DNA from: Pseudofabraea citricarpa
Taxonomy: Eukaryota > Ascomycota > Leotiomycetes > Helotiales > Dermateaceae
Direction of reading: 5' to 3'
Assembly (NCBI GenBank): GCA_029641185.1
Contig: JAPWGK010000021.1
Coordinates: 186,001-250,000, forward strand
DNA length: 64,000 bases
Positions 1 through 62,707 of the stretch are shown one piece after another; within the stretch, counting starts at the first letter, position 1; the number at the start of each line of letters is the position of its first letter. The notes beneath the pieces were generated by a model that saw only the letters and a program-made list of their open reading frames with translations, was not told the origin of the DNA and searched no databases. The position numbers and the translations under genes were made by a program.

Positions 1-1749
1 GGAAGAGTAAATTCCTTCCACATAAACTGTACGACTCTCAACTTCCTAGTGCATAATCCATCCCTCCATCCGACACCTCGAAAGTAAACATTTCCTTATA
101 TCATCAGCCTACCTACTCTCACATCATCTCCCATCCTTACTCCCTCTCACATATAAAAGTTTTGTCTCGGCTTCCTCTGTCGGAAGACCACCTTGGTAGG
201 GCAGGGAGGGGGGGAGAAAAGCCTTATCTGATGTGATCACATGAGATCAGTGCTGGATGGACTGAAGAGGGCGGGGTTGGGGTGGTAGGGATACGGATTC
301 AGAAAATTGGCAACCGGCATATTCATCAGGCACTGCAGATACTTGTTTCTCTTCTCTCTTCTGTGCCTGTGTATCCTGCCCACCTGCCTTGACCTGTAAT
401 TTAGCCTTACTTTTTCACCTGACCCTACTAAAAGAATCCAAAAATGAATAAAACAGAATCAAATTCATTGAGCACGTCTTTCTTTTCTTTTTTCTTCTTT
501 TCTCTTCTTTTCTTTTCTTTTCTCTCTCCTCGGCTCTTTCAATTCCTCACTCCCCCTCTCCTCGGCCTCGAGATATCATCCATCATTATCATCATCTGAC
601 TACCTAGGTACCTAACTGACATGCAGCTCACGTGCACGCTCGTCGTACACTCGTCGCACACACTCTCCAAAGCTTTCTGTCTCTGATATAAGTAAGGAGG
701 AGTATCAGAAACGGATAGATACCTAGGTAGGTAGGTAGGTAAGTAAGTATCAGCCATCTAAGTATTTATATCCCTAATCCTTTTTCTTTTTTTCTTTCTT
801 TTTTCCCACTCTCACCAACCTACCAACCAACCTACCTTGTATATAAAGTCTAAATCTCCTCCCTTGTGCGAGTATTCCTTTTTTCGGTTTTTTTTGTTTT
901 TTTGGAGGGGAGGTAGAGAGTGTGAAGAGAAAAGAGAGAGAGAGAAGGAAAAAAAAGAAAAAAAGAAACACGGTGCATACCCAGGTAGGTACTTGTACTT
1001 GTACTTGGGTACCTAGGTTCTTGGGTCGGGTAGGAAGAGGAGAAAGAGGATGACGAGGATGAGGCAGAGAACAGGACGGGTATGGCAAGCGAAGTGGAGG
1101 GAAGTGGAGGGAAGGTCAAGGGAAGGGAGATAGACGTATATCACTATATCCGTGTCTTGGTTATTGGTTTTGGTTTTGATCTTGGTCTTGGTTTTGGTCT
1201 TGGTTTCGGCTTTACCTAGAGATAGAAGGATGAATCAATAGCTTAGATTGATAGCGTAGATAGTTCGGGCCATCCTGGCAGTGAGTGTTTTATCTTATCC
1301 ATCTATCTTCACTTCACTTCACTTCACTTCACATCTCCACTTTACTTTACCAACCTTTTTCACTCCCTGTCGCCTTTCCTTTCTCTCTCTCTTTCGCTTC
1401 TTCTTCTTTTTATTCTTCTTTTTTTGGGGGGTCGGGAGGGGGGATGGGGGGTCTTCTGTTTCCTTTCTCATTGTCTTCTTCTCTCAATCTTCACTCGCTT
1501 CATTCTTTGCAGTTGAAAATTTAGGTTCGTTATATCATCACATCGTTGATTGGATTGTATCGTAGCTATGTATGATATATAGATTGGAGGATTCTTCTTC
1601 TCCTCTTCCATAGCTCATACCATACCATACTATACCATAAGTCTTACGTCTGTCTGTCTGTATGTCCGTCTGGATCGATACTGGGAACTTTTTCTTCTTT
1701 CCCATTCCTGTTCCTGTTCCTGTTTCTCTTCCTCAGTCACTCACTCCTC

Positions 1750-2798: not shown

Positions 2799-4049
2799 GA
2801 TCTTGAATGGTTTTCGAGTCCTGGGGTGCTTGATTAACATGGTGCCCAGGTGTGGAGGTTGTCGTCGAGGGATGGGACAGGAGGGAAGCAAGGGCGGTGG
2901 CCGAGAGGGAGAGGGTTCAGAATGAGGGGTTCAGAAGACCAAACAGAGTAAATAAACAAAGCAAAGGGGGATTGAGCGTCTTCTTGTACGCCCGGGAAGC
3001 TTTTCCCATGCTGATCATGCTGGTGTTTACAGAGAACCGGTGAGCAGCAGCAGCAAAAGAAGAGGGTGTGCTGGTGATGGTGGGGAGATGAGAAAGAGCA
3101 GAGGTATCAGAAGTCACCCACCTTGTTTCTCCTCTCCTCTCCAGACCAGACTCAAGCACGCTACAGGACGGGAAGTGATGCGATGGCGGATGAGCAGCAG
3201 CAGTAGTCGTGAAGGTGTGTGGGAGTCGTAGAAGTATAATAGCTCAGACACCAAAAGACGGTGGGCAAGGAAGAAGCATCATAATAATGATAATAATCAT
3301 GGCTCTTGTCTCCGGGACTCTCGCAGACGGAGGACAACAGAAGGTAAGCTCTGTGCAAGTCACACCAATAAACAGTCAAGAGTGGAGTTCCCCATGTCCC
3401 ATGTCGTGGCTCGAGTCGATGGCTGCTATCATTTGAGGCTGCGAGCTTTTCTGCTTTCTCCTCTTCTTCTGCGGGCTCGTGCCGGAATCATCGAGCCACT
3501 GGCTGCCAGCTGATCTGATCCAATCGGCACGAGGTCTGGACCTCTGGACCATGCTCCCCAACTCACCGCTTTTCGCCATCTGGAGTGCTACTGTAGGAAG
3601 AGATCGTGGGCTGCAGCTGCACTGTGCTACGGTACAGTAGCTATGATATCCATATCGGGTCACGACTTTCGTGGTATGCGTTGAGTAACCAAGAGCTTCT
3701 CTTCTTTCTTTTTTTTCTCTCTCTTTTTGATAACCATGTATCGTTACTAAGCTAGCTAGCTAGCTTTGGCCTTACACTTGAGATAACTACAAGCACTTGA
3801 GGGACTTCATCTTCAATCATCATCGTGTTGTACTACTAATCATTCATTGTTTACTTTTACAGTACAATAATCAGATGCTTCATAATGACTTGTGTCACTA
3901 TGCTCGCAATCATCTTTGAGGTCACATGTTAGTACACTACCGATATAAGCATGTGACACATAATCACATGACACAGGTCCACCTCGCATTCCTCGCTCTC
4001 GTGTTGCTCGCCTAGCATGAGCTCATCGCCTCGTCGCCTCTGAGTTGCC
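2799..4049. other. Intergenic region, no gene seen
   Basis: This stretch lies between two minus-strand genes: the 5' side of the 205-aa gene and the 3' side of the 497-aa gene. Open frames are short and mutually overlapping. A GCTAGC tandem palindrome lies near 3761-3775, and a TC-rich tract near 3700-3728. I see no RNA gene. Confidence 0.5.
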
Positions 4050-6328: not shown

Positions 6329-7942
6329 ATGCCGCCACGATGTCCATCCGTTCAGGGGACATTGACCCCGTTCCTCTATCCGTTCCTCGTGCGCAACATC
6401 TCTCGATCCTGTCTCGGCCGGAGATATGAAAGCACAACCGCCATTTCAGAACAAGGCTCGCACTTGAACCCGCCGCCGTCCGACTACTCGCGCTCCGTGT
6501 TTGCAGACAAAGCCTCCATCACCCTCATAGCTGGATCGGGAGGTCATGGCTGTATCTCCTTTGTTCGAGAGAAGTACATCGAAGCAGGACCAGCGAATGG
6601 TGGCGATGGCGGAAGTGGAGGAAACGTCTACATTCAAGCTGTCCGAGGTGAGACGAGTCTACACAAGCTCGCGCGGAGGAGTATCTTGAAAGCCGGCCGC
6701 GGAAAGAATGGACAGGGCAAGACTCGAGGGGGAGAGCGCGGAGATGATATCATTGTTCAAGTACCCGTCGGAACCATCGTAAGGGAGATAGACAGGCTGG
6801 ACCCGGCATTCGAGGAAGAACAACGATTGATGCTCGAGGCCGGCAAGGAAGAAGGTCTTGCTGTTGATCCAAACGGACCGTATAAGTGGGATCGTGATAA
6901 GTGGCTGTTGTATCCCGCCATCACTAAGGAGGATATTGCGTCTGCAGAGTTCCCTACTCTGCCTCGCGGCAGGAAATCCGCACTTTCCATGTCTCAGGTC
7001 AAAGCTCCAATCTCTCTGGACTTGTCAATGCCTATGGATCGACCGGTACTCCTGGCAGCTGGAGCTATAGGTGGATTGGGAAATCCGCATTTTGTCACCA
7101 AGACAGCACCACGACCAAAGTTCTGTACCAAAGGAGAGGTTGGGATGCGAGTCACGTTGGAACTGGAGCTCAAACTTCTGGCCGATGTAGGATTAGTCGG
7201 GCTCCCTAATGCAGGAAAGAGTACTCTATTGCGATCCATCAGTAAGAGCCGAGCAAGAGTTGGAGATTGGGCTTTCACGACCCTACAGCCAAACATCGGA
7301 ACTGTGGTTCTTGACGATTACAAAGGAAGACCAGTCGCACATTCAAGACACCAAGACGGCGAGATCAGAACCAATTTCACCATTGCCGATATCCCCGGTC
7401 TGGTAGAGGATGCCCATCTCGATCGAGGACTGGGTATAAGTTTCCTCCGCCACGTCGAGCGAGCTGGAGTTCTCGCCTTCGTCATTGACCTCTCAGCCAC
7501 CGATGCTGTGACGGCGCTCAAGTCCCTCTGGAAAGAAGTAGGCGAGTACGAGCGAATGAAGATCCAAGAAGAGAAAGACAAAGCAAACATGATCGTCGAA
7601 TGGTCACCCTTCGCCACAGTCGACGACGCTATCGCCAACCGATCTGAGACTATCGTCGTGCAGTCCGGTCCGTCGTATGATAACCCGCTCGCACCTCAGA
7701 CGTTCTCTATCGCTGGCAAACCCTGGTTTGTCGTAGCCACCAAGGCTGATATCGAGGGCACGCAGGATAATTTCACAAAGCTGAAATCGTATCTTGATGA
7801 TGTCAATGCGAAGAAACAGGAGCACCCGAGTGGGCAGAAGAATGCTTGGGATGGGAGAGTCGAGGCTATTCCCGTTAGTGCTATCAACGGGCATGGAGTT
7901 GAGAAGATTACGGAGTGGACTGTGGGATTGTTGGAGGGGTGA
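6329..7942 (+). CDS. MTG2: Mitochondrial Obg-family GTPase (Mtg2-like), 537 aa
   Basis: Intronless gene for an Obg/CgtA-family GTPase, known in this family to act in mitochondrial large-ribosomal-subunit assembly at the inner membrane. Residues 1-45 are basic, Ser/Arg-rich and lack acidic residues, as in a mitochondrial targeting peptide. An Obg glycine-rich fold follows (about 55-270, with SGGHGCISF, NGGDGGSGGNVY and GRGKNGQGKTRGGERG). The GTPase domain shows G1 GLPNAGKST (about 292), a G2 threonine in FTT, G3 DIPGLVEDA (about 353), G4 TKAD (about 471) and G5 PVSAINGHG (about 516). About 70 residues are inserted inside the Obg fold (about 155-225) compared with bacterial Obg. The start was chosen as the first ATG of the frame that gives a good presequence. 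An upstream frame at 6199 is a shadow. Confidence 0.95.
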   Translation: MPPRCPSVQGTLTPFLYPFLVRNISRSCLGRRYESTTAISEQGSHLNPPPSDYSRSVFADKASITLIAGSGGHGCISFVREKYIEAGPANGGDGGSGGNVYIQAVRGETSLHKLARRSILKAGRGKNGQGKTRGGERGDDIIVQVPVGTIVREIDRLDPAFEEEQRLMLEAGKEEGLAVDPNGPYKWDRDKWLLYPAITKEDIASAEFPTLPRGRKSALSMSQVKAPISLDLSMPMDRPVLLAAGAIGGLGNPHFVTKTAPRPKFCTKGEVGMRVTLELELKLLADVGLVGLPNAGKSTLLRSISKSRARVGDWAFTTLQPNIGTVVLDDYKGRPVAHSRHQDGEIRTNFTIADIPGLVEDAHLDRGLGISFLRHVERAGVLAFVIDLSATDAVTALKSLWKEVGEYERMKIQEEKDKANMIVEWSPFATVDDAIANRSETIVVQSGPSYDNPLAPQTFSIAGKPWFVVATKADIEGTQDNFTKLKSYLDDVNAKKQEHPSGQKNAWDGRVEAIPVSAINGHGVEKITEWTVGLLEG

Positions 7943-10816
7943 TCGTACGGAGAAGAGAAGTTGTGTATTTATATGTATTTGTATGAATATGTAATATGTG
8001 TCGGTGCTATGTACAATCACTTTTTTCTTCCTCTTTCTCTATCTCGTCACCTTGGTCTTTCTTCTGATGAGCAAGCTATAATAATCACCACATCTTTTAA
8101 GTATATAGTTTCGCTTTTCTATTTCCTTTCTCCTCTTTTCCTCTTTTACTGTTCATGTTTTCTTCGCTCGTAACAATAGGTACCTATCTACCTACCTACT
8201 CAAACCATCTACGGCACACGCTATGTATGTAGAAAATCTCCTATTTCCCTCATTTCTCGTCCCGAACCTCAAATTACGTCACCTGACCTACCCAATTCAA
8301 ACACCAAGATCACCTTCGGTCTACGGCTTATATACCTATGTAGCGATTCTTTCTCTCCTTCTTCCTTCCTTCCTCGTGCTCAAGGCCAAAGTTCTTTTTC
8401 CTCGTACCTGTCGGGGGAGCCATTCCGGTCAAGGCGACCATCTTTCCATTACTCCCGAGTCTTTTCTCTTCCGTCCATCGTTTTTCCGTTTCTTCTCTCC
8501 CTCTTCTGCTTTTCTTCTTCGCTGCTCCTGCTCTACTCGCGGGGCTGACAACGGGATGTGCTATGACAACGAGATTTTACTAGGCTGTGGGAGATATAGG
8601 ATGGGGGATGGGCGTGGGGAAGGGGGATGTGGGAAGAGAGCCGCAGCGAGGTTTACTGCGGAACTCTGTATCGATGCTGATTTTTCATGCTGCATATCTG
8701 GCTAGGCAGCAGCAGTGGCTGCGGACACCTCGAAACATTGGGATGAAGAGGAAGAGGAAAGGGGAGAGGAAGAGGGAGATATATATAGAGAGAGGGCAGA
8801 GTGGATGGTGGAGTGCATTGGAAATTGGGAGTTAGAAATTGGATGAGTGTCTAATCTAAAATCACCAGACATCCAGTCCAGTCCGCGATATTTCAGCGTC
8901 GAGCCAGACAAAAGATCGAAAGACGCCGTAAATACAAATACAAATGTCACGGTATCGATCGAAACGCGAAGGGACAGGTCAGGTCATTCCCAAAACGGCC
9001 TTTGAGGCGCTATAAATGCAGACACCAGCCAGCAGAAGCAACTGCACCACCATCGTCATCACCACCAGCACATGCGCTTCAACCACGGGCATCTTAGTTG
9101 CCAGCATCTTCCCACCTCTGCTATGTCGTTATACACGGCCTCAAACTACCAACGCAAGACAGTCACCCTGCTAACCTAACTCCCCGCCCTTGAATTAAAA
9201 AAACAGAAAGCATGACAACATGAAGACAAATGACAACGAAAGGAACAAAACGCTAAAGATGAAAGTTGAGAACATAACATGTCATTTCTTAGCTGTGGGG
9301 AGTTTATGTGTAGCTTCGTAAAGAGCCGAAGGAATCTGCTCTCAATCGATTCTGAAATTGTCTTCGTTGATTTGAGGTCGTTTTTTTACTCTGACCAGAA
9401 GAAGAAATCGCAGGATGGATTAGGGGGTGTGGGTTTTTGTAGGAACGAAAGCTGAGGAATCGAGGATATGTGAGTGCCTCGTATTCACCCTCGCTTGTGC
9501 TCGTCTACTAAGCGCAAACCCAACTCAAACCTGATTTCTTCTACCCAGATCTTTTGGGATAAACAGGAAATGAGGATGTTTTTGACTGAGATATTTCAAA
9601 GATTCCAGATCTTGAAGAGAAAGGAGAGAGAATAGGGAAGAAAAACCCTAACGCGATTCCTTCGTCTTGCCTCTTCCTCATTGTAACCTTGACTATACTT
9701 GATGTATTTTTTATTCAGATCCGGGGCCATCTAGATTCAGATACAGATTTGAATTTTCTTTTAAGATGTGAGAGACATAGTTGGGATTTGTCACGTGTAC
9801 GCTAGTAGCCTATATAGCTCTTGCCTAGTGCTGAGTCTCCGAATAACATCATCATCATCATGCAACAGGATTGATTGAAAGTCAGCATAGAGCATCAAGA
9901 ATGTGAATGCATACCCCGGTTATTCATCAATTTCCCCTCTCTCCGGTCCGGCGTTTTATTATGAAAAGAACTCGACCTGAAATGCTTCCCTCTCCCGAGC
10001 TTCCAGGGACCAGGCCCATCCATACATCTCCCTCGCCAGCTAGTAGAAGCAGGAGTTATTCGACTACTTAACGAAGCAAGACTTCCAAATCCGGTCCTCG
10101 ATCTGTTTTCAAAGTTGGAACGTCTCGCCTTTGTTTTTCTGTTGAATAAAACATACGAGGGGTGCTGACAACGGGAAGACTGTTGACAACGGGAGGCTTT
10201 TGAGGGTGCGTCAAGGGTTGAAAGGAGGCATGGGGTGACCTGATCTTTGTCCTCATACTGTTGCTCTTCAATTCTAACTTTTACTCTTGGTATTCAGCCG
10301 AATCTTTCGCAGCAGAGTCGGTTGCACTTCTACGAAATGGAGTCTTGTGGCCTTCGTTATGGGTCGTTATTCCCTTTTTGGATCAAGAGAAGAATGATGA
10401 AATCTTACAATGCCAGCCCCCCTAAAGCAGAGATAGAATACGAATCGGCCCAAAGGTTACTCTCAGCGTCACGCCTTGAAAATGTAGCTCCGCACCCTCC
10501 GCCCAGTTTGACCACCTCAAGGTCGGCGCTTGCCTAAGCGACTTCACAGGTTTTGTAGGCCACCAACACTCACTGTTCGTCACCTAGTAAATTCTGGCAA
10601 GAGAAAAAATAAGTGTACATCAAGTCTATAGGGCGTGACGCCGGTGTTGGCAAGAATTGAGTCACAAGTTTTCCAACCTAGCGTATGTGTTGGGCGGGAC
10701 TCAATCCATTCTACCTGTATAAAAGCTGGAAATCATGGTTTTATTCATTCTCTACCAATCTCCAAGCCTAACTACCTATCCAAAACTTATTTCATACTCT
10801 CAAATACACCGCGAAG
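7943..10816. other. 2.9-kb intergenic stretch without a clear gene
   Basis: Downstream of MTG2 the DNA is T/C-rich (about 8020-8170 and 8330-8530), with a TACCTATCTACCTACC motif near 8181-8200. From about 9000 to 10800 the composition is balanced, but all open frames are short and lack protein character. A small multi-exon gene or a non-coding RNA cannot be excluded by eye. Confidence 0.45.
10718..10724 (+). promoter_or_regulatory. TATA box before the CheD-like gene
   Basis: TATAAAA about 93 bases upstream of the ATG at 10817, at a plausible distance for a fungal core promoter. Motif match only. Confidence 0.5.
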
Positions 10817-39064: not shown

Positions 39065-42000
39065 ATGGCCGAAACGGAAGCGCAACCAACAACGCCATGG
39101 CAAATCGCCCGTAATCGCTACTTGGAGCAACTCGAGCCACATGAGCGTGTGCTATTCAATGAGGCAACTGTCCAAAATCTTTTCTACAGTAGCTCTAATT
39201 TAGAACGAGCCGACAGGCTAAGCTCTAAAGCGCGAAAGGGCATTGACGCTCTTCGTCCTTTGATTGAAAAGATCGAGAGTTACGGCAAGGCTATGGATAC
39301 ATACGCGAACATCGCGCCTACCTTCATAGCTCCTATATGGGGAAGTCTCAGGGTCATTTTGGTCTTTGCACAACGTTTTGAAAGGTTTTATGAAAGAATG
39401 ACAGATTCTTTGGGCAGGATAGGTGATATATTACCTCGGCTTCTTGTTTGTTCTGACGTCCACTCTTTGATGATGTGAATTAACGTATACCAGGATTACC
39501 AACGCATTTTCTCCCAAGCGAAGCACCCTCGCCTCAAAGAAGCTCTAGCAAATACCTATCTCGACATAATTGGGCTATGTATGGAATTTCGGGCAATGCT
39601 TAGAGCCCAACAGAAAAGCTTCATGAAAAGAGTAGTCCAGCCCCTGGGCGCTAGCGTTGAAAAACAGTTCAAAGATGCAGAAGGAAAGTTCCGAGCACAC
39701 AAAAAGACTGTCGAAAAAGAAGCCGAGACATGCCATATGATCGAGGCAGCGGAGGCAAGAGCGATAGTTTGTCGGGACAGACAATTGCAAGAAATGAAGG
39801 ATAAAGGTATGTTCACCTTAGAAGCGCATGAAGCCCACAAAAATAGTTAATCATACTGTTCATAGCGACAACGAAGAAAAGAATTCTTAACTTACTATCA
39901 GCTACTAGTAGCCATGAAAAGCACAAGAAGCTCAAGTCTCTTCGACATGGAAAATCTGGAAACTGGATATTCTCTACATCCGAGTTCCAAAGGTGGACTC
40001 AATTCAAAGCAACATCTGTTTTATGCTGCTATGGTATTCGTGAGTGTCCACTCCTCGGTGAAGTTGTCTCGCTGACATATATGTAGCTGGTTGTGGCAAG
40101 ACAATACTAGCCTCTGGTGTCATTGACTTCATGCTAAGTCTGTCTGCATCTGAAACTAGGTCTCCTAAGCTTGCATTTCACTACTGTGATCACGCCGACA
40201 AGCGGACTCTTGAGCCAGTTAAAATTGTTGGATCATGCCTACGCAGCATGTTTGAGACTGCTGATATTCCACCTCAAATAATTGAGCTAATTACGAAAGC
40301 ATATAAAGATGGCGAAAGATCTCCAGAGTTCAAGGAAATGCTTGATATTCTACTGCAAAGCATTGGCGTCTTCGATGAAGTGATTCTTGCGATAGATGGC
40401 ATTGACGAAACAAAAGAAAAAGACCGCCAAATTCTATTTGAAATTCTAAATTCCTTGATGAAGCATCATTCATATTTTAAACTCTTCATCTCGTGCAGAG
40501 AAGATGTGGCTCTTTCATTTTCTCCAGCTAAATCCTCCTATTTCTGCTTGCAGGTCTCTGCGACTGTGATATCGACCGATATTAGTGGCTACATCCGAGA
40601 TTCAGTTGAATCGTTGCTTGAAAAAAGGAAAATTGTTCTTCGTAAGGCAGAATTAAAGGAGGAAATCATAACTGCGTTAACTGACGGCGCCAAAGGAATG
40701 TAAGTGTTCAGATAACATACAATATCAAAGCCTTGGCTTACTTGTTCAGGTTTCTCTGGGTAAAGTTCCAGCTGGACGACTTGTGCAATGCAGAGTCCGA
40801 TGCCGAGATCAAGTCAACTCTTCAGAATTTACCTCAAGATCTGTCTGAGACCTATGACAGACTACTCGACAGAATCATTGGCGCTAACAGGCAGTCTCTG
40901 ATAAAGCGGATGTTTCAGTGGATAATATGTGCTAGACGCCCATTAACAATCGGTGAACTCTGCGAAGGGATTGCGTTCACTATCGATGACAACTTTTGGA
41001 ACGAGGCGAAGATCCCGACTGATCTTTCCCGATTGATTAGGGCGAGCGGAAATCTGGTCGTGGTTGATAACGAAAGTCGGACAATTCAACTTGCGCATTA
41101 TACAGTCCAACAACATATCATTGACGATAGAAAGTCTACTAGGAAGTTCTTTCGATTCAATATTCAAGAAGCAAACGAGGTTCTGGGCGAAGTCTGCGTC
41201 GCATACCTCAACTTTGCAGACTTCGAAACTCAGGTCACTCCTTATGTTGACAACAGAGTCACCGCAAACATGGCCACTTTGGAAAAGCTTTTGCCAGAAT
41301 TTTCAAGGGTAGATTACATTTCTCAAACCAAGGGGCCTCTCGTTGGAATAGCTCGCATGGGTCGCATGTTTCAAAGCAAAGCCAGCCCGGCAAATATTGA
41401 TTACAACCGATACATACCAGTAAAGAGTAACCCTTTGGAGACTTTTCTAGAAAAATACGTTCTTCTAGAATATATTCGTGAGAACTGGTTGTGGCATACT
41501 ACGACTTTCGTGCCATCAGAGGTACAGGGGGACAAGCGAGATATCCTTTTTCATCAATTGGTCTTACGAAAGCAACTTCCGTTCTCCTTCAGGCCTTGGA
41601 AAATTGAGGCAGATATTAAAATCAATTATCGCTATCTGGAACCTGTTGGATGGGCTCTTGCCACAAACCACTCTGCATTGCTGCACACACTATTAAAAAC
41701 GAACAATGATTTCAGACCCTGGAGATACATTAAAGATGCTGCAAGGTGGTTCTTCGACAAAAGCCCAAGTTCTCACATTTCATCTGCTATGATTCAACGT
41801 CTCGAACGCTGTTCAGAAGATACCTGGGATGTAAACTCCGTTCCTCGGCAAGGCTGGTTGTACGGGAAGTTTATTGATGCCTGTAGAAGAGGAAATCTCG
41901 ATGTCTTGAAAGTCTGTTTTAATGAAGAATCGGACTTGCCACTTGGAGAAGGCTACCCATGGAATCAATTGATTTCCCATTTAATCATTGAGGCGGCTGC

Positions 42001-44101
42001 TAATGGCCAGCTTTCTGTGGTGGACTTTATCCTCAAACATCCTACAATAGGTGATATGTACGATGTCAGTTTTACAATGGCACATAACAAGGACTCTCTC
42101 AATGCTCTGGAGATTGCTGCCCTGGCTGGCTCGATTCACGTGGTCACAAGGCTCCGAGTATGTGGTTGGCAACCTTCTAATATGTCAAGTTCCAGTGTTG
42201 CAACTGGTTTCGAATACCTCAATCAGGCAGTTGATGGAGGGAATATGAACGTCTTTGAAGCTCTTTTGTTTACACTTAAACCATCCGATTTTGGTGTTTT
42301 TTTCGAAATGCCAGAAGAGGTAAAATCTAAAGGGCTCATGTTAGCTGCGTCGGCCGGATATTTATCCCTGGTAAAGAGTTACTGCAAATACGGGGTGGAC
42401 CCTCTGAAGCCAGACATTGAAAATCACTGCGCTTACATGCGTGCCATAAAGAATGGAAGACTTGAAGTGGTTGAGTATCTTATTTCAACAGGTTGTGGAG
42501 TTGGAGCAAACATAGAAGGTCTACCATTGAGCATGGCAGCATTGACGGGTAATGTTAAAATGGCTGAGCTCCTGATATTTCATGGTGCTGAGGTATTCAA
42601 CAACTCAGGCAAGATGCAAAGCTTAATATACGTAACACCTGGCCATCACTCGGAGTCATGGGTTGTTGAAGTAAGCCCAATACCTTTGTATATTGCAGCG
42701 GTCAACGGCCACTCAGAAATAGTAAAACTCTTGCTAAAGAATGGTGCTGGGTCAGATGCCCAGAGCGCAACAGGCCTGTGTAGCGCTATACTGAACGCCA
42801 CCAATCCGGAATTTAACCGAATTGACGCAAGAAGACTACTCTTTCTTCAAGACGAGGAGACCGATGAAGTAAAGAACATTGTGAGCAAACTCAATGTTCC
42901 ATACGTTCAAACACCACTGGCTGGCGCTGCGCTCACTGGACATGAAAACATCGTTGAACTACTTCTCAAGACAACAGTCACAGTGGATATAGAAGACTCT
43001 AATAATGATACAGCCTTGTTCCTGGCAGCAGTTATGGGCTACACTACTATTGTAGACCTGCTACTTGGAGCCGAAGCTAAGCCAAACTGGAATCGGTTGT
43101 GTTCTGATACGGCGGCTCTTCGGCTTTTGCTAAATCGTGGCCTTTCACCAAAGATCGTGGATGCCAACCGGGAAACATCACTTTTTGCTGCAGCAAAACA
43201 CGGTTCGGTTCAAGCTCTGGAACTACTTCTCGAACATCGATTCATCATGGATGTTTTGATTAATTATCCAGGCCCCAACAATCAAACACCCCTCCTCAAA
43301 GCTGCTGATCAAGGTCATGCAGCAGCGGCTTCAATCTTGATTGCTGCTGGTGCAAATCTCGATGCTATAGATGCCAACGGATACTCACCACTCATGCTTG
43401 CAGCACGGAGGGGATGTGTCGAAACAACAGATCTTTTGCTCTCGAAAGGGGCCTTGGTCGATTTTCCTGGTACTGTGGGACTTTCACCGCTCGCCGTTGC
43501 ATGTACAAAAAGCCACAGCAATATCGTTCGTCAACTACTCTCTCACGGAGCAAATGCGAACTGTTGGTTACCGAGACCCTATTTCTCAGTACCAGGTGAC
43601 CCTAATCTAACTTCGGCTGGGGACAATATTACTGAAGTCCAATTCACTGCACTGATGGCTGCTTCAATGAATGGTTCACAGCAAGTCGTTGAGTTATTAA
43701 TAGCTGCAAATGCTGATGTTAATGCTAAGGATGAAATAGGCTGTACCGCATTAATGCTCGCGGTAATCAATGATTCACAAACTATTGTCGCGTTATTAAT
43801 AGCTGCAGGTGCTGATTTGGATGCTAAGGATAACTCCGGCTATACAGCATTAACTTTCGCGATAATCAATGATTCGTGGGAGCTTGTTGCGCTGTTAATA
43901 GCTGCCGGTGCTGATCCAAATGCCAAGGATAACTCCGGCTACACAGCATTAACTTTTGCAATAATCAATGATTCACAGGACCTTGCTGAGTTATTGATAG
44001 ATGCAGCAGATTCAAACGCCAAGGACAACCACAGCAGTACATTGATGGTTTCTGCAAACAATAGCTCAGACAGCATGGTCGAGGAATCATTCAGCGTATA
44101 G
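39065..44101 (+). CDS. NACHT-type NLR with C-terminal ankyrin repeats, 1610 aa, five exons
   Basis: Exons: 39065-39445, 39494-39806, 39866-40039, 40087-40699 and 40750-44101. The introns are 47-59 nt with GT...AG ends, and the total is 1611 codons including stop. The N-terminal ~200 residues are helical (FIAPIWGSLRVILVFAQRFERFYERM), a type common in fungal NLRs. The P-loop GIPGCGKT (about residues 288-295) is completed by the third splice, and Walker B VILAIDGIDE is near residue 393. A winged-helix-like region follows (LPQDLSETYDRLLDRI, LTIGELCEGIAF, IQLAHYTVQQHI). From about residue 800 to the end are ankyrin repeats; the last three or four are nearly identical with a ~99-nt period. Such proteins act as nucleotide-switched sensors in fungal incompatibility or immunity; the effector and trigger here are unknown. 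Confidence 0.92.
43680..44035 (+). repeat. Near-identical ankyrin-encoding tandem repeats, 99-nt period
   Basis: Three to four consecutive 33-codon units. The last two full units share a ~50-nt block reading AAGGATAACTCCGGCTAYAC then AGCATTAACTTTYGCRATAATC, with only silent changes. Earlier repeats in the same gene are much more diverged. This points to recent duplication or gene conversion within the array. Confidence 0.85.
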
Positions 44102-56120: not shown

Positions 56121-56897
56121 TCAATTTTCCAGCTTTCCACACAGCGGATACTGCACGAAAAACTCACTATTCCACTCGCCCAACGGGACCTTCTCCCTGG
56201 CGCTCAACAAGCCAGCACAATGTCGAGTATGATTAGCGCTAGTGACATAGAAATCCATAACACTGCCTCTCTCAAGATGGCGGATCAGCTTCTTCCACGT
56301 ATACAAGCAGTGCGTGAGGTGATACTCCCACGTCACCCAGCCCTTATCGATATCGCCACGAACGACCATCTCTCGACTGATGCGCTCCGTCCCATTCGCA
56401 TCTACACTCCAGGCCCAGTCGTGCTCCGACAGGAACGCCGCCGTCAGCTCGCCGTCGAAGCAGCCTGGCATCAGCCACGTGAAGGATATCGCGTCGAACT
56501 TGCACCCGCGCGCTCGCGCTTCTGTCGCTGAGGACCCGCAGGACTGTGGCGACGATGGCGCGATCAGGGGGTTGTAGTTCGCTACGTACTTGTATTCTAC
56601 TGCGGTGTGCTTCTCTCTCATCGAATGCGAGAGAATGCCGTTGGATGTGTACTGGGTTACGAAGACTAGCATGACGCTGCTTAGGAACGTGAAGGCTATT
56701 GAGAGGCTGATGTAGAGCAGGCATTGCCGCAGCAGGCCTCGGTGGGCTTTTTCAATTGGTTCTTCATTTTTGATGGGGATTGCTTCGCTTTCTGGGAGCG
56801 AGTTGTAGGAATCTTTTCGCAGGCGGTGGGGAAGGAGTTTTGTGAGGAATGGTGAAGATTCCTCCATCTTGTTTTGGTTTGATTTTGCGCTTTGCAT
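56121..56897 (-). CDS. UstYa-like membrane protein with two HxxHC motifs, 258 aa
   Basis: Intronless; a second in-frame ATG (residue 11, MEESSPF) may be the true start. A short cytoplasmic N-terminus precedes one transmembrane segment (about residues 59-82, CLLYISLSIAFTFLSSVMLVF). The lumenal part has SCGSSATEARARGCKFD, ISFTWLMPGCFDGELTAAFL, then EYHLTHCLYTW (His193, His196, Cys197) and ANHTRHCAGLL (His223, His226, Cys227). I recognise the overall pattern as a common, mostly uncharacterised ascomycete family. Two HxxHC motifs behind a single N-terminal membrane anchor are also the hallmark of UstYa-type oxidases, which bind copper and cross-link peptides. Relationship to UstYa is inference from the motif layout. 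It is the nearest neighbour of a canonical UstYa gene on the same strand, 1.2 kb away. Confidence 0.85.
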   Translation of the reverse strand: MQSAKSNQNKMEESSPFLTKLLPHRLRKDSYNSLPESEAIPIKNEEPIEKAHRGLLRQCLLYISLSIAFTFLSSVMLVFVTQYTSNGILSHSMREKHTAVEYKYVANYNPLIAPSSPQSCGSSATEARARGCKFDAISFTWLMPGCFDGELTAAFLSEHDWAWSVDANGTERISREMVVRGDIDKGWVTWEYHLTHCLYTWKKLIRHLERGSVMDFYVTSANHTRHCAGLLSAREKVPLGEWNSEFFVQYPLCGKLEN

Positions 56898-58122
56898 TGT
56901 CGTTATTGAAATATTGGCGTCTTCGAGGCAGATATCTGTCTTTTAGGAGAGAGAAGCGATGTAGTTCCGGGTGATTCAAAATTGGAAGCTGAGAATCGTA
57001 TGATGAGAAGCTAAGTTGAAAGAAGAAGTGTTTGTAACTTTGTACTCCATCCGGTAGCTGCATGATCTACAGGATATGACATATCGAAGTAGATCTGAGT
57101 TAAGCATGCATAATCTGGTCACCACGAGCTAGCCAACGAAGAGCACTCCTTCAATACACAAGCACACACACGAATGGAATATATACTTTGCATTGTGACC
57201 GAGATAGATCCGAGATGGTCGCTTGACTTTCATGGAATCTGCCAATGAAGAGTAACACCTCGCTCCAGGTAACAAGCAAAAAGGTTCCACTTACACAAGT
57301 CCGTTACCAGCGAATTGACACCGATGCAGCTGTTGTGCACCGAGATGGCTGGGTCAGTAGTGTCAATCCTCTGGCTTTCCGACCAGAGCGTTGTGTACTT
57401 TTCCTCTGAGCAACATCCATCACCCGACCATAATTCTAGACCTCTTCCACAAACGCCGCTGATCATGAGTGCAACGCCTCTTTCCCTCTCTTTACCCTTT
57501 TCGATTATTATCTACCCTTGCACTGAAACCACCATCCTCCTAGCCGAAAGATCCAAAAGATACTTTTTCCTCGTCCTACCATCTATGTAGTTCCGTTACG
57601 CGAGCTCGCTTGAAAGCGAAAAAAACCGTTATCTCTGTACTCTCGTACCCAGCTGCCATGCAGGGTTCCGTTACACAGCGTGATCTCTCAGTTGACTTCT
57701 CACTGGAAATCTCTTCCTACCCCGCTGTATGAGGGGTTCTGGCTTCTGGGTCTCCCTGCTTTTGGCATTGGTGATGTGTCATCTCTCGGCTGGATACCAT
57801 GATGGCTTCTTGCAGGTTCAGCTTCAGATCCCATGGGTGTACTTGATCTTGTGTACTTTCAGAACCCGGCTAACACGGACCAGACGTGCTGTTGGGTTGG
57901 GACGTAGACTGGCTGGGACGAGTGGATCGAAGAGGAATGGTCGAGGTTCAACGGCTTTGCACGATCATCAATTTGCTGAGTTGGGACAGTTAAAACTCCA
58001 CTTTGAATATGCACTAGTTTCTTTCAATTCAGCGAATCACAATATCTATCTCAATCTAATTGAAGCCGCGATAGGATAAAAGATAAACTCTAGCAAAAAG
58101 GAATAATCCCAGATCCACAACG
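56898..58122. other. Intergenic region between the two UstYa-like genes
   Basis: About 1.2 kb. Short plus-strand frames (57315-57590 and 57729-58079) lack domain character. No gene supported. Confidence 0.5.
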
Positions 58123-59122
58123 TCAAGCACCCTCCTTATCATCCAATTTAACCCTCAGCTCAGCGACAGGATCCAAGCCGGGCCAGCTCTCGATGACAAA
58201 CCCACTGGTGTTAAACCTGCTGGCCCAGTCGTGAATCTTCTGAAAGTTGCGGCACGTATGCGGCACGGCGAAGTTGGGCACCCAGTCCGGCAGCAGCGGG
58301 TTGAAGGGTCGGCGCCGCGCCTTGTGCGTGATGGGCGTCACGTCGGCGTGGCACATGATGACCTGCCGCAGGTAGTCGATGCAGTGATCGAGATGGATCT
58401 GGTCCTGCCGGTCGTCGGCGTTGTAGAAGGCGTTCGTCCCGTACACGATGTTCCGGATCGCGTTCAGGCAGTGCAGCTGGTGGAAGACGTCCAGCTGCAC
58501 CAGCGGCGTGTCGTCCGTGCTTGATATGGGCTGTGTTGGCCGTTGGAGCGTTTGGTTCATTTCGGGAGTTAAGGAAACCATGCCCACTGTTTTTTGTTAT
58601 CTTCTCGTTAGCTTTTTGTCTCTGGTTTTGTTTTTGTTTTTGTTTTTGCTTTTATTGGAGACTTCTGAAGGATCCCTTACCGTCCATTAATTCGTACCAG
58701 AGCATGTCTGACTTGGGAGTTGGCGGCCCTTCGTATGGCGTCACGGGATTATCTCGTGTTCCTCCTCCACTGATTTTGAAAACGACAGTTTCGTATTCTA
58801 TCGCTTCTGCTGCTGGTGCTATTCCCTAATCAGTTTTTCTTTCTATTTAGAATCCCAATAGACTGGACGTACAGAACTCCAAAGGTCGCATAATCTCGGG
58901 TTTGATAACCGTTCGCAAGGGTGCGAAAGTCCAGAATGAAGAGATCCAAAATGTCGCAATGGCCGTGTGCAGAAGAACAAAAATGGTATGGATTCGAAAT
59001 GTCTTGACTTCTTGCTGAATCTTGGCTGTATTGCTTAATAGACCCGTGTTAAGGTCTTCCTCGTGGTAAGTCTCTTGAGAGGACTCACGAGAATAAGAGT
59101 CTTTGGAGTTTGAGTAAGGCAT
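58123..59122 (-). CDS. UstYa-family (DUF3328) oxidase-like protein, 283 aa, three exons
   Basis: Exons on the minus strand are 59122-58873, 58818-58681 and 58586-58123. Introns of 54 and 94 nt have GT...AG ends (GTACGT...GAATAG and GTAAGG...AAACAG), and the total is 284 codons including stop. The first splice joins RPLEF to SPAAEAIEYETVVF, a typical UstYa opening. One transmembrane segment lies at about residues 44-64. Next come PYEGPPTPKSDMLWYELMD and the two copper-ligand motifs FHQLHCLN (165-169) and HLDHCIDYLRQ (194-198), then CHADVTPI. Known family members oxidise and macrocyclise ribosomal peptides (ustiloxin, cyclochlorotine-like and related pathways) in the secretory route. It is divergent from the repeat precursor at 59925, which makes that gene a candidate substrate (inference). 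Confidence 0.93.
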
Positions 59123-59498
59123 GCTGAGAAAGACTTGGCGGGGATGAGATAGACTGGATAGAGGAAGGAAGTTGATTTGAAAGAAGCAGACGAGGAAACA
59201 AACGGAAGCCCTTGAGATACTGGTGAAAAGCCAAGAGAAATTCCAAGATCCTCGAGCTGAAAAGCCTCCGGTCCCATGCCGATTCTTAGTTTGTCTTCTC
59301 AAGCTGTCAAACGATACACAATCTTTGAAGTTACATGCTATTTAGTTTGTATTTCAACACTCCACTTTTAAAAATTCAAAGCAAGTCTCTTCGTGTTACC
59401 ATCATTCGTTCGTGTATCACTTCTATCAAGCACGCTTGGAACATTGATGTGAGTGATTCTGCTCTGGCAGAATAGGTTTTCGGGTATTGGATAGCAGC

Positions 59499-59542
59499 TG
59501 ATCTGTATACAAGACATCGGTGATCTGTATACAAGACATCGG
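59499..59542. repeat. Perfect 22-bp tandem duplication in the divergent promoter
   Basis: The unit TGATCTGTATACAAGACATC plus GG occurs twice without mismatch. Each copy contains the palindrome GTATAC. It may be a duplicated regulator site or a chance slippage product. Confidence 0.92.
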
Positions 59543-59808
59543 TACTTCCGTACATGTCATACGATTGAACTTTTTATCAGTGTTCAGTGTTGATAATTGG
59601 TCTTCCAGAGGTTACATATCAGCCACTACCAGCTTTCAAGTCGATTAGTGTATCATAAACACCTCGTATTGAGCAAGAAGAGAAGAAAGTTTATTCCTTG
59701 TATCTCACAGCAAAGAAAAATAGCTTCTTGAAAGATTGTGGCTGACTCCAGTTACATAGAGTCGACGTGGTCTCAAGAAAAGTCCTAGATCTAAGCTCAA
59801 ACCTGACT

Positions 59809-59818
59809 TATATAAAAA
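59809..59818 (+). promoter_or_regulatory. TATA box before the precursor gene
   Basis: TATATAAAAA about 107 bases before the ATG at 59925. Confidence 0.55.
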
Positions 59819-59924
59819 CAAGACCACATCCTCTCTGGCAAACGAAAAGGACAAGCACAAAGAATCTCTACAGTTCAAGCAACAAACCTATCTCCACACC
59901 AATCCCTCAAGTTCTAAAATCAAA

Positions 59925-60683
59925 ATGCGTCTCTCCCTCATTTCTTTTCTTGTAGCTCTCGCAGCTTCACAAATCGCTGCATTCCCAGCAATTTCAGACC
60001 GCTCTGCCAAAGCAGCAGTTCCACCACCCGTTGACGTACGTCTCCATCTCTCACCACAAGGAAAAACAAAAAGAAACGAAAGGAAAAGTGACAGCAATGG
60101 CTGACAGATAATAAAAAAACCAGCATGCATGTTACTACAAGCGCGATGCTGAAGGAAAGGTCGGCAGCTATCGCCGCGACCCTAGCGGTGCCGTGGTAGC
60201 ATGTGAGAAGAAGCGCGAAGCTTCTCCTGCCGGGGGCGTAGTTGCTGTTGATGTAAGTTACTCCCACATTCGACTTCTACATATCCCGTAAAGATCACCG
60301 GTTGATGAATTCGGCATCTAGCATGCATGCTACAACAAACGTGATGCTCACGGCAACGAAGTCGGATATAAACGGGATCCCAGTGGTGCTGAAATACCAT
60401 GCCAGACTTTGAAGACTCGCGAGCCTGAAAGTGAAGTGGTCAATATCAAAGATCCTGATGTAAGTTCTGTTTTCTCTCTCTCTCTCTATCTCTCTGTGCT
60501 TGTGCAGGGGGAGAGAGAGAGAGAGGAATCACTACCCACAAAGGAGTAGAAGAAAAGAAGAAGAAAAAGACTAATTATTTCTGGTATCAGAAAGCTTGTT
60601 ATTACAAGCGTGACGCTGAAGGCAATCTGGCTGGCTATAAGCGAGATGCTACGGGTGCTGAGATCACTTGTGGTGGTTCCTAA
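59925..60683 (+). CDS. Secreted Kex2-processed repeat precursor (candidate RiPP/KEP), 156 aa, four exons
   Basis: Exons are 59925-60035, 60124-60252, 60322-60459 and 60591-60683, all phase 0, with introns of 88, 69 and 131 nt. Exon 1 encodes a signal peptide (MRLSLISFLVALAASQIAAF, probable cut after Ala) and a short spacer. Exons 2, 3 and 4 each begin with one copy of a repeat, [HK]ACY[YN]KRDA, then a Gly-containing segment ending in Tyr, then [KR]RD[PA], [ST]GA and a second Cys. Between the two dibasic sites every repeat leaves exactly nine residues: DAEGKVGSY (45-53), DAHGNEVGY (88-96) and DAEGNLAGY (134-142). DA, DP and EA after KR/RR suit trimming by a Ste13-type dipeptidyl aminopeptidase. 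Family knowledge: fungal Kex2-processed repeat proteins and dikaritin precursors share this plan. The peptide's identity and role are unknown. The alternative is a small Cys-paired secreted protein. Confidence 0.9.
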
Positions 60684-61098: not shown

Positions 61099-62707
61099 TC
61101 ACTTGGATCCTTCCAACTGCTCAACATTCTCCTTCTTCTCATCAGCAAAGTTGAAGTCATCACCGGTCTCGATATCCTTGGTAGGTTCGATTCCGACCTT
61201 GACCTTGTCGGTCCATCCGTCGAGCATCTTGCGCTGGAAGATGTTCAAGTAGATAGGGAAACAAGCAGCGATGAGGAAGCCGATGAGAGGAATGAACATA
61301 GCCTTTTGTGTGTTTCCACCAACTGGGCAGTATTAGCATTTGATCTCCGTAAACGAGACGGAAGGTAAACTTACAAGAATCGGCAACGACACCAAGAACA
61401 GGTGGGAACAATGCACCACCACTGACAGCAGCGACGATGAAAGATGCACCACGCTTGCTGTGACGACCAAGACCTCTGAGGGAGAGGGTGAAGATAAGTG
61501 GGAAGACACAAGATTCAAAGAAGAGAACCATGCAGATAGAAGCGACACCCGCATTGCCCTTGACTCCCATACAGATACAGGCGAAGATCACAACACCAGT
61601 AATGAATCCCATAAGTACAAGACGAGGCTTGATATACTTCATCATACCGGTAGCTACGAAACGACCGACAGCGAAACAGGCTTGTGCGACAGCGAGTAAG
61701 TTGGAACCAGTGGCGTGAGAAGTGCCCGGCTTAACCCAGCTGACATAGTTGATGAAATATCCAGCATATGCGACTTGGGCACCGACATAACAGAATTGAG
61801 CAATAACACCGAAGAAGAGGGTGTACTGTTTGCTAAGTGGCTTGTCCGCATAATCGGTATCATCAGCGGCTTGCTCAGCCTGGGCCTCCATGTCGGCATC
61901 AGTGACTTCTGGAATTGGAGCGAAGAAGAAAACAACAGCCAAGAAGAAAACAAAGATGGCAATGCCGAGGTACACCCATTGGACGGATTTGAGCGAGGTA
62001 TCGTCAACATTCTTGAAGATGACTTGAGAAGCGAGAACAGGTGCAACGACGGTTCCGATGGCCTGGAAACCCTGTGCGAGGGTAAGACGCATCTCGGAGT
62101 ATCTTGGAGGACCACATGTGGCGATGAAGGGGTTTGCAGCTGCCTCAAGAGTTGAGAGACCGCTGCCAACGATGAACATGCTACCACAGAAACCACCAAA
62201 ACTGTAAATTGTTAGTCGCGGCTCTATTCCATATGAATGATTTAACTCACGATCGCTTAAGGCCGGATGGCCAAAACATCAAAGCTCCCACGCCATAGAT
62301 GCAAAGACCAATGATAAATGCCCATCGGTAACCGAGTCTTCTCACAATCCACCCGGAGTATGTAAGAGGACCGATGAAGTAAGCACCAAAGTAAGCGGCC
62401 TGCAGACCACCAGACTGGCCCTGAGTAATATTTAAAGCGACCTGGAAATGAGCGTTTAGCACGTCGAGAAGACCGTACGCAAACTGTGGATGGTTAGCAT
62501 GTGCTCATTTATGCGGATCGGCGATTAACTTACTCCCCACATGAAGAAGAGAATGGTGACCAAGCAGACAGGCACAATAGACTGTCGCAAGGTGATTTCA
62601 CCTGCTCCGGTGACGACATGGTCATCAATTGCTTTCTTGGGCTGGAGCTTTGCAATGACTGGAGCAGAGCCCTTCCTTTCAGGTTGAACTTCCTGAACGT
62701 TCGACAT
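61099..62707 (-). CDS. FHS/FucP-family major facilitator permease, 485 aa, four exons
   Basis: Exons on the minus strand are 62707-62534, 62483-62251, 62201-61375 and 61322-61099. Introns are 49-52 nt with GTAAGT or GTGAGT donors, and the total is 486 codons including stop. The sequence shows twelve probable helices, with the FHS signature FFMWG-FAYGLLDVLNAHFQ formed across the first splice. It also has GGLQAAYFGAYFIGPLTYSGWIVRRLGYRWAF, MFIVGSGLSTLEAAANPFI, SLRGLGRHSKRGASFIVAAVSGGALFPPVLG and a hydrophilic tail. Members of this MFS branch import fucose, glucose or galactose by proton symport; the sugar here is not evident. The central loop (about residues 225-260) is acidic. Its position beside the peptide precursor may be chance. 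Confidence 0.93.

What the first reader, a model, noticed from the sequence alone, without database searches (positions are those of the whole stretch)
56121..60683. Candidate UstYa-associated ribosomal peptide locus: two HxxHC membrane proteins next to a Kex2-type repeat precursor
Seen: a canonical UstYa/DUF3328 gene, a second single-pass protein with two HxxHC motifs, and a secreted precursor with three dibasic-flanked repeats lie within 4.6 kb. Known: UstYa-type oxidases work on peptides cut from repeat precursors by Kex2-like proteases. Inferred: the precursor is the substrate and the locus makes a short, possibly cyclised Tyr-containing peptide. No methyltransferase or P450 is present, so this would be a minimal cluster.
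Basis: partly seen in the sequence, partly recalled or inferred. Interest (0 to 1): 0.9.

Follow-up and report, generated by a model that had tools for sequence, protein, structure and literature searches.

The report
Fungal cyclic-peptide locus with paired oxidases
A fungus carries three neighbouring genes, a secreted repeat protein that looks built to be cut into short peptides and two membrane proteins resembling enzymes that chemically cross-link such peptides, and related fungi seem to keep these genes together, one of the two proteins belonging to a family that the standard domain library misses.

Summary
Gene A (56121-56867, minus, 248 aa), gene B (58123-59122, minus, 283 aa, three exons) and gene C (59925-60683, plus, 156 aa, four exons) are all there. 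B is a plain UstYa/DUF3328 protein (PF11807, E=1.6e-46). A matches no Pfam family, but profile comparison (hhalign probability 63-84%) and an AlphaFold model make it a likely remote DUF3328 relative with the same two HxxHC helices. C has a signal-like start and three 26-aa units, one per exon: A-C-Y-[YN]-K-R-D-A-x-G-x-x-x-x-Y-[KR]-R-D-x-x-G-A-x-x-x-C. Both dibasic sites are kept in all five units known (three here, two in Bisporella).
Best reading: a Kex2-processed RiPP locus of the dikaritin sort with a second, Pfam-invisible DUF3328-like partner. The genome has 14 family-A places, 10 within 6 kb of a UstYa match. It is one of at least seven repeat-precursor loci of this kind in the genome. 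Product, cross-link, copper and expression are untested.

The parts
56121..56867 (-). Gene A: single-pass membrane protein, 248 aa, no intron; double HxxHC (HLTHC, HTRHC) after a Cys-rich segment; likely remote DUF3328/UstYa relative without a Pfam match
58123..59122 (-). Gene B: canonical UstYa (PF11807) protein, 283 aa; exons 59122-58873, 58818-58681, 58586-58123; HQLHC and HLDHC
59925..60683 (+). Gene C: secreted repeat precursor with dibasic (Kex2-type) sites, 156 aa, four exons (59925-60035, 60124-60252, 60322-60459, 60591-60683)
59925..60035 (+). Exon 1 of C: signal-like peptide MRLSLISFLVALAASQIAA and short leader
   Evidence: hydrophobic 19-mer at residues 5-23; no signal-peptide predictor was run
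60124..60252 (+). Exon 2 of C: repeat 1, HACYYKRDAEGKVGSYRRDPSGAVVAC...
60322..60459 (+). Exon 3 of C: repeat 2, HACYNKRDAHGNEVGYKRDPSGAEIPC...
60591..60683 (+). Exon 4 of C: repeat 3, KACYYKRDAEGNLAGYKRDATGAEITCGGS
59123..59924 (.). 802-bp intergenic region between divergent genes B and C; possible common promoter (inference)
   Evidence: coordinates

Best explanation
A small RiPP gene cluster of the UstYa/dikaritin sort. Precursor C enters the secretory pathway. The Golgi protease Kex2 cuts after each KR/RR and a carboxypeptidase trims the basic residues, freeing 9-mers of the form [DS]-A-x-G-x-x-x-x-Y (DAEGKVGSY, DAHGNEVGY, DAEGNLAGY), plus Cys-bearing pieces (D-[AP]-x-G-A-x-x-x-C...; ...ACYY). 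The luminal domains of gene B (canonical UstYa) and gene A (a diverged DUF3328 relative) each bind copper through the double HxxHC motif and together oxidise these peptides, most simply by joining the C-terminal Tyr phenol to a side-chain carbon upstream (Leu/Val/Ile at positions 6-7). Shown here: genes, repeats, conserved dibasic sites, family membership of B, likely remote kinship of A, linkage in relatives. Inferred: Kex2 cutting, copper, oxidation, the identity of the core and of the cross-link, and that A and B act together (perhaps as a heterodimer).
For: B is PF11807 at 1.6e-46. A aligns to UstYa over both HxxHC motifs: hhalign score 39.3, probability 63%, E 7e-5, against at most 23.6 in 12 column shuffles and 14.8 reversed; with P0004 taken out of both alignments, score 45.9, probability 84%, E 7e-6, at most 17.7 in 20 shuffles. 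A family-A profile made without P0004 matches 40 of 119 UstYa hits at E<=0.001 in that small set. In the AlphaFold model of A both motifs sit on neighbouring helices (180-200, 211-222; pLDDT block means 82-93, pTM 0.59), as in the model of the Bisporella B homologue (165-183, 189-211) and as described for CctR (PMC12435403, first of three parts read). Ten of ten dibasic sites are kept over five repeats in two species. Linkage: Bisporella, one contig length for all three; Geoglossum, consecutive tags for A and B; Penicilliopsis, A and B domains in one predicted protein. In PMC7329392 22% of 7878 fungal KEPs have a DUF3328 gene nearby, most often next door. In the same genome six other places pair a repeat precursor with UstYa or family-A genes.
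Against: No expression, peptide or biochemical data. The precursor has one known homologue, none found in Geoglossum although A and B are there. Two conserved Cys per repeat are not explained by a Tyr-based product. Positions in Bisporella are unknown; one contig is inferred from equal contig length. UstYa genes are common in this genome (46 exon-level matches), so adjacency here alone would be weak. The first A-to-UstYa comparison, with 10 sequences, was inconclusive (probability 6.8%), and the closest UstYa relatives match the family-A profile only weakly (P0002 E 0.046, P0003 E 0.43). Of 24 family-A sequences 20 hold both HxxHC motifs; three paralogues of this genome (at C39:957 kb and two at C23) do not.
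Confidence: 0.78

Rival explanations
1. C is a linear secreted peptide precursor (signal or pheromone-like KEP) whose peptides are not cross-linked; A and B serve some other product.
For: Most KEPs have no DUF3328 gene nearby (6120 of 7878 in PMC7329392), and linear KEP products exist.
Against: Homologues of all three genes carry one contig length in Bisporella; B and C are divergent neighbours 802 bp apart; [quoted passage not shown]
Confidence: 0.1
2. C is an intact, Cys-paired small secreted beta-hairpin protein (YD/RHS-like repeats, DxxG turns), not a peptide precursor; the KR pairs are structural.
For: Weak Pfam RHS_repeat match, E=0.0064 and below the curated cut-off; two Cys at fixed places in five of five repeats; D-x-x-G twice per unit, 11 residues apart, in four of five units.
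Against: The Bisporella homologue gives no RHS match at E<=1. Ten of ten dibasic sites are kept, and a protein passing the Golgi with exposed KR should be cut (inference). Linkage to two DUF3328-type genes.
Confidence: 0.08
3. Cys chemistry is the point: the enzymes or plain disulfide formation join C-Y-Y...C within a repeat, with the DAxGxxxxY piece removed like a connecting peptide.
For: Cys at repeat positions 2 and 26 is kept in five of five repeats. A repeat precursor with Cys-ended units (ADYGDYGDC) also lies about 2 kb from a UstYa match at C23 ~572 kb.
Against: No Cys cross-link by DUF3328 enzymes appeared in the passages read here; only the 9-mer is bounded by dibasic sites on both sides at constant length.
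Confidence: 0.15

Closest known systems
Asperipin-2a cluster (aprA, aprY, aprT, aprR; Aspergillus flavus)
   Same: Very small cluster: precursor plus a DUF3328 enzyme; Tyr-containing core (FYYTGY); a transporter gene in the cluster (an MFS gene lies next to C here). From PMC6514808, passages read.
   Different: Different core sequence, one DUF3328 protein only; no reductase gene was seen between the flanking genes here, and there is a second Pfam-less double-HxxHC protein; repeats carry two Cys and one exon each.
Ustiloxin/phomopsin clusters (UstYa/UstYb; dikaritins)
   Same: Precursor cut by Kex2-type proteases; ustiloxin needs two DUF3328 proteins, UstYa and UstYb, together with UstQ (PMC6514808 passages).
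   Different: No tyrosinase, methyltransferase, P450, FMO or peptidase domain among the frames tested from 40 to 62.8 kb (part of the frames). UstYa and UstYb are described as mutual DUF3328 homologues, whereas gene A lies outside PF11807.
CctR (cyclochlorotine hydroxylase, DUF3328)
   Same: Single transmembrane helix, luminal helical domain, HxxHC(x)nHxxHC on paired helices; described as a binuclear copper enzyme and homodimer (PMC12435403, first of three parts read).
   Different: Acts on a non-ribosomal peptide; gene A adds an upstream Cys-rich segment and is unrecognised by Pfam.
Kex2-processed repeat proteins (KEPs)
   Same: Signal-like start, three units of 8 or more residues between dibasic sites (criterion in PMC7329392, section read).
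   Different: Units are only 62-73% alike inside the window (16-19 of 26), two dibasic sites and two Cys per unit, one unit per exon; the Bisporella copy has two units, below the threshold of three.

Membership tests
Kex2-processed repeat protein (gene C) | Signal peptide | tested here: inconclusive
   Hydrophobic 19-mer at residues 5-23; no predictor available
Kex2-processed repeat protein (gene C) | At least three repeats of 8 or more aa between dibasic sites | tested here: met
   Three 9-mers each bounded by KR/RR on both sides; the published scoring itself was not run
Kex2-processed repeat protein (gene C) | Actually cut by Kex2 | not testable with these tools
   No peptide data
DUF3328/UstYa (gene B) | PF11807 above curated cut-off | tested here: met
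   159.4 bits against 25
DUF3328/UstYa (gene B) | Two HxxHC motifs and one N-terminal membrane helix | tested here: met
   HQLHC 165, HLDHC 194, hydrophobic segment 46-64; helix in the model of the Bisporella homologue
DUF3328/UstYa (gene A) | PF11807 above curated cut-off | tested here: not met
   No UstYa match in 10 of 10 family-A proteins at E<=1
DUF3328 superfamily in the wide sense (gene A) | Two HxxHC motifs on paired helices behind one membrane helix | tested here: met
   AlphaFold models and profiles (hhalign probability 63-84%), no solved structure
Dikaritin RiPP cluster | Repeat precursor linked to DUF3328 gene(s), linkage conserved | tested here: met
   Window; Bisporella by equal contig length; precursor not found in Geoglossum
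Dikaritin RiPP cluster | Tyr-based oxidative macrocycle in the product | not testable with these tools
   Tyr ends each of five 9-mers; product unknown
RHS/YD-repeat protein (gene C) | RHS_repeat above curated cut-off | tested here: not met
   17.3 bits against 22, E=0.0064; none in the Bisporella homologue at E<=1

The most novel reading that the evidence does not exclude
Family A is a second branch of the DUF3328 dicopper enzymes, outside PF11807, that pairs with canonical UstYa as a heterodimer and perhaps works alone on some precursors (at C39 a family-A gene, with a changed second motif, sits beside a repeat precursor and no UstYa was found). In this locus the pair makes a cross-link not yet known for the group, for example between the conserved Tyr and Cys of the CYY...C units.
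Probability: 0.2. Interest if true: 0.8.

Novelty: new variant of a known kind. Interest (0 to 1): 0.58.

Why it matters
A 2025 paper defines DUF3328 as copper-dependent enzymes (PMC12435403), and fungal RiPP mining leans on DUF3328 domains and on near-identical repeats. This locus shows a conserved partner family that PF11807 does not see, and a precursor whose repeats are too diverged for a miner that asks for 90% identity (criterion in PMC11109268, passage). Motif-based searching for two HXXHC motifs, recommended in two papers seen in passages (PMC12048977; PMC12871659), should pick up family A. Whether DUF3328-type proteins act as heterodimers becomes directly testable with two small proteins and one short precursor.

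Tried and rejected
Precursor paralogues in the same genome: the four matches are the gene itself. Solved structures: no useful sequence match for A (one, E 0.93), B (none at E<=1) or C (one, E 0.51), and none of 67 Foldseek matches for the model of A reaches E<=0.001 (best 0.80), so the A-UstYa kinship rests on profiles and on similar element order in two AlphaFold models (pTM 0.59 and 0.60), not on a solved fold. NCBIfam: chance-level matches only for family A. Viral and prokaryotic contig scans with family A: 16 and 46 pattern matches, no relative, as expected for a fungal family. First hhalign comparison with 10 family-A sequences was weak (probability 6.8%, E 0.0053); it rose after adding 13 paralogues from this genome and the Penicilliopsis domain. 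Because P0004 was then in both alignments, and its match was by construction, I repeated both without it: P0004 still matches family A (E 3e-57) and the hhalign probability is 84%. The low E-values of UstYa proteins come from a small set scanned without filters and partly from the membrane segment. Precursor scan by script: the reversed-sequence control gave 15 groups (4 with three or more units) over 264 kb against 19 (8) in the real sequence; reversal keeps tandem repeats, so it is a harsh control, but the scan alone is not proof, and I kept only places whose frames looked like a repeat precursor on reading (for C34 ~180 kb and C28 the signal-like stretch lies in another frame or exon and was not joined). 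The 6-kb limit was set after seeing the distances. The label 'paired with A' is not one clade in the UstYa tree (3 changes; 41 of the 120 listed hits used), since fragments from metagenomes could not be labelled. Gap figures printed used rough gene ends; those replace them. Literature: PMC papers only; searches listed no paper that by title, start of abstract or passage read describes this locus or a Pfam-less double-HxxHC partner family; key subscription papers are not held, and the UstY-like criterion of another tool (PMC11109268) may already include family A.
Full report
WHAT IS THERE. The window is part of a 798-kb contig of a 44-Mb genome in 43 contigs, fungal by its genes. Between a tubulin cofactor D gene (Pfam ARM_TBCD and TFCD_C, 52.1-55.75 kb) and an MFS transporter (about 61.1-62.7 kb) lie three genes: A (56121-56867, minus), B (58123-59122, minus, three exons) and C (59925-60683, plus, four exons); gaps are 1255 bp (A-B) and 802 bp (B-C). 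B is UstYa by Pfam, 159.4 bits against a cut-off of 25. A has no Pfam match at E<=1. C has one, RHS_repeat, below its cut-off. Four other longer frames between the flanking genes have no Pfam match. Upstream of cofactor D the frames tested are SET, DUF7730, SDR, acetamidase and NACHT-like, not a recognisable RiPP tailoring set; an SDR gene about 9 kb away cannot be excluded as part of the pathway.

THE PRECURSOR. C encodes MRLSLISFLVALAASQIAA... and then three units of 26 residues, each in its own exon, with three GT..AG introns that each fall between whole codons. With the two units of the one homologue, Bisporella sp. PMI_857 P0001 (1 hit at E<=0.01 among 2179 candidates, E=2.6e-14), the five units read A/S-C-Y-Y/N-K-R-D/S-A-x-G-x-x-x-G/S-Y-K/R-R-D-x-x-G-A/G-x-x-x-C. 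Ten of ten dibasic sites, five of five first Cys, five of five last Cys and five of five Tyr at position 15 are kept. The window units differ pairwise at 10, 10 and 7 codons in amino acid and at 10, 8 and 12 codons silently, of 26; NG86 dN is 0.26, 0.23, 0.18 with dS 2.4, 2.3 and not computable. So the dibasic pairs are maintained while their codons drift. Only the 9-mer between the two dibasic sites of a unit has constant length; it always ends in Tyr.

IS GENE A A UstYa PROTEIN? By Pfam it is not. By motif it has HLTHC and HTRHC behind one hydrophobic segment. Nine homologues were found at E<=0.001 (of 170 candidates): Geoglossum, Trichoglossum, Bisporella and unnamed metagenome proteins; that search samples, so nine is a lower bound. 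In this genome 14 places match a family-A protein. Of 24 family-A sequences 20 hold both HxxHC motifs; the exceptions are P0129 and three paralogues here (C39:957 kb, whose second motif reads HTIDC, and two at C23). Also kept in at least 20 of 24 are C-G, A, G-C, D, W, C and D of the segment CG.....A...GC..D.....W....C.D. Against a UstYa alignment the family scores 39.3 (probability 63%, E 7e-5), aligned over both motifs and the stretch before them, where 12 column shuffles reach at most 23.6 and the reversed alignment 14.8. With the Penicilliopsis protein P0004 removed from both sides the score is 45.9 (probability 84%, E 7e-6) against at most 17.7 in 20 shuffles. The first comparison with 10 sequences was inconclusive. 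AlphaFold places both motifs of A on adjacent helices, and the model of the Bisporella B homologue shows a similar order of elements by my reading. Foldseek finds no solved structure with E<=0.001 for A. I conclude that A is probably a remote member of the DUF3328 group in the wide sense (works like), not a PF11807 member (is a).

CONSERVED NEIGHBOURHOOD. Database rows give no coordinates, but they give the contig length. In Bisporella the precursor homologue, the best B homologue (69% identity) and an A homologue (57% over 59% of A) all carry contig length 379,806 bp; that they share one contig is inferred from this equality. In Geoglossum simile the A homologue is M1840_008526 and the B homologue M1840_008527, both with contig length 124,496. 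In Penicilliopsis zonata P0004, residues 13-150 match a family-A profile built without it (E 3e-57, small set) and 151-348 match UstYa; whether this is a true fusion or two neighbouring genes merged by annotation cannot be told. These genera are in Leotiomycetes, Geoglossomycetes and Eurotiomycetes. In the UstYa tree (42 rows) B falls with Bisporella, Geoglossum and four metagenome rows (95/93), with Penicilliopsis in the next starred set of 11 rows.

THE SAME GENOME AS CONTROL. Of 14 family-A places 10 start within 6 kb of a UstYa match, while 0.66% of the genome lies that close (the limit was chosen after the distances were seen; by locus it is 4 of 7). At C39:957,029-957,814 a family-A gene lies 1.3 kb from a repeat precursor (C39:955,400-955,732, units like REVGYTYPTAEKKR) and none of the 46 UstYa matches is on that contig; this search scores only the best candidates, and this family-A copy has a changed second motif. 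At C22:56.8-69.3 kb four family-A and several UstYa ORFs surround a precursor (units KRQGIQGLHNY...). Four further places join a UstYa match with a repeat precursor (C34 ~180 kb, C34 ~1870 kb, C23 ~572 kb, C28 ~354 kb). The locus given is therefore one of at least seven such loci in this fungus.

HOW IT PROBABLY WORKS. From established knowledge: KEPs are cut by Kex2 in the Golgi; CctR, a DUF3328 protein, is reported as a membrane-bound binuclear copper enzyme and homodimer (PMC12435403, first of three parts read, and a term search); asperipin-2a cross-linking by DUF3328 enzymes is described as dicopper and oxygen-dependent (PMC12186524, passages). In PMC7329392 (abstract and two sections read) 22% of KEP genes have DUF3328 genes nearby, and 65.6% of the repeated sequences of those KEPs contain Tyr. 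Applied here, the 9-mer [DS]AxGxxxxY is the likely core, its Tyr the likely cross-link site, and A and B the likely catalysts. That A and B form a heterodimer is my inference from conserved pairing and from the CctR homodimer.

WHAT SPEAKS AGAINST. One precursor homologue only; none found in Geoglossum; no transcripts, peptides or enzyme data; the invariant Cys pair is unexplained by the simple model. A secreted hairpin protein, a linear peptide or a Cys-linked product stay open.

NOVELTY. KEP plus DUF3328 loci are known in numbers. New here, within the searches made, are the precursor type and the Pfam-less partner family with conserved pairing. I file it as a new variant of a known kind.

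Noticed in passing
L035 3400-3732 (-) and 5029-5814 (-); G000:C39:955400-955732 and 957029-957814: Repeat precursor MRLVKSLVVLAVAIAVGAAP...KREVGYTYPTAEKKR 1.3 kb from the best-scoring family-A paralogue (second motif HTIDC), with no UstYa match reported on this contig: family A may act without a canonical UstYa.
   Followed up: partly
L027/L028; G000:C22:56.8-69.3 kb: Dense locus: precursor with KRQGIQGLHNYVTLKVKGSDADE units (58370-58774, minus), several UstYa ORFs and four family-A ORFs.
   Followed up: partly
L036 ~8015-8300 (+); G000:C34 ~1870 kb: Precursor with KRTEASAAYQYTDTPFKRSVEDLG units about 1.5 kb from a UstYa match.
   Followed up: no
L044 ~7200-8300 (+); G000:C23 ~572 kb: Precursor whose frame is broken after each ...EKRADYGDYGDC unit, as if one repeat per exon like the window, about 2 kb from a UstYa match.
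   Followed up: no
L046 ~8830-9150 (+); G000:C28 ~354 kb: Precursor with KRDEEVSDWIYPPPDRKS units beside UstYa matches.
   Followed up: no
L039 ~3100-3300 (-); G000:C34 ~180 kb: Precursor with STALYSYIVADSEVEEKR units about 1.3 kb from the genome's best UstYa match.
   Followed up: no
L032/L033; G000:C23:1769.8-1776.1 kb: Four family-A ORFs (two without an HxxHC motif) and a UstYa match in 6 kb; no repeat precursor found by my scans.
   Followed up: partly
57696-58079 (+): Open frame with a hydrophobic stretch (MRGSGFWVSLLLALVMCHLS...) between A and B, no Pfam match; may be spurious.
   Followed up: partly
61099-62707 (-): MFS transporter next to the precursor; may be an ordinary permease or the exporter of the product.
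   Followed up: partly
P0004 (Penicilliopsis zonata): Predicted protein joining a family-A domain and a UstYa domain; true fusion or merged gene model not decided.
   Followed up: partly
40062-44101 (+): NACHT-like frame (NPHP3_N) followed by a long frame with ankyrin-like repeats by eye (not scanned): looks like a fungal NLR-type gene.
   Followed up: no
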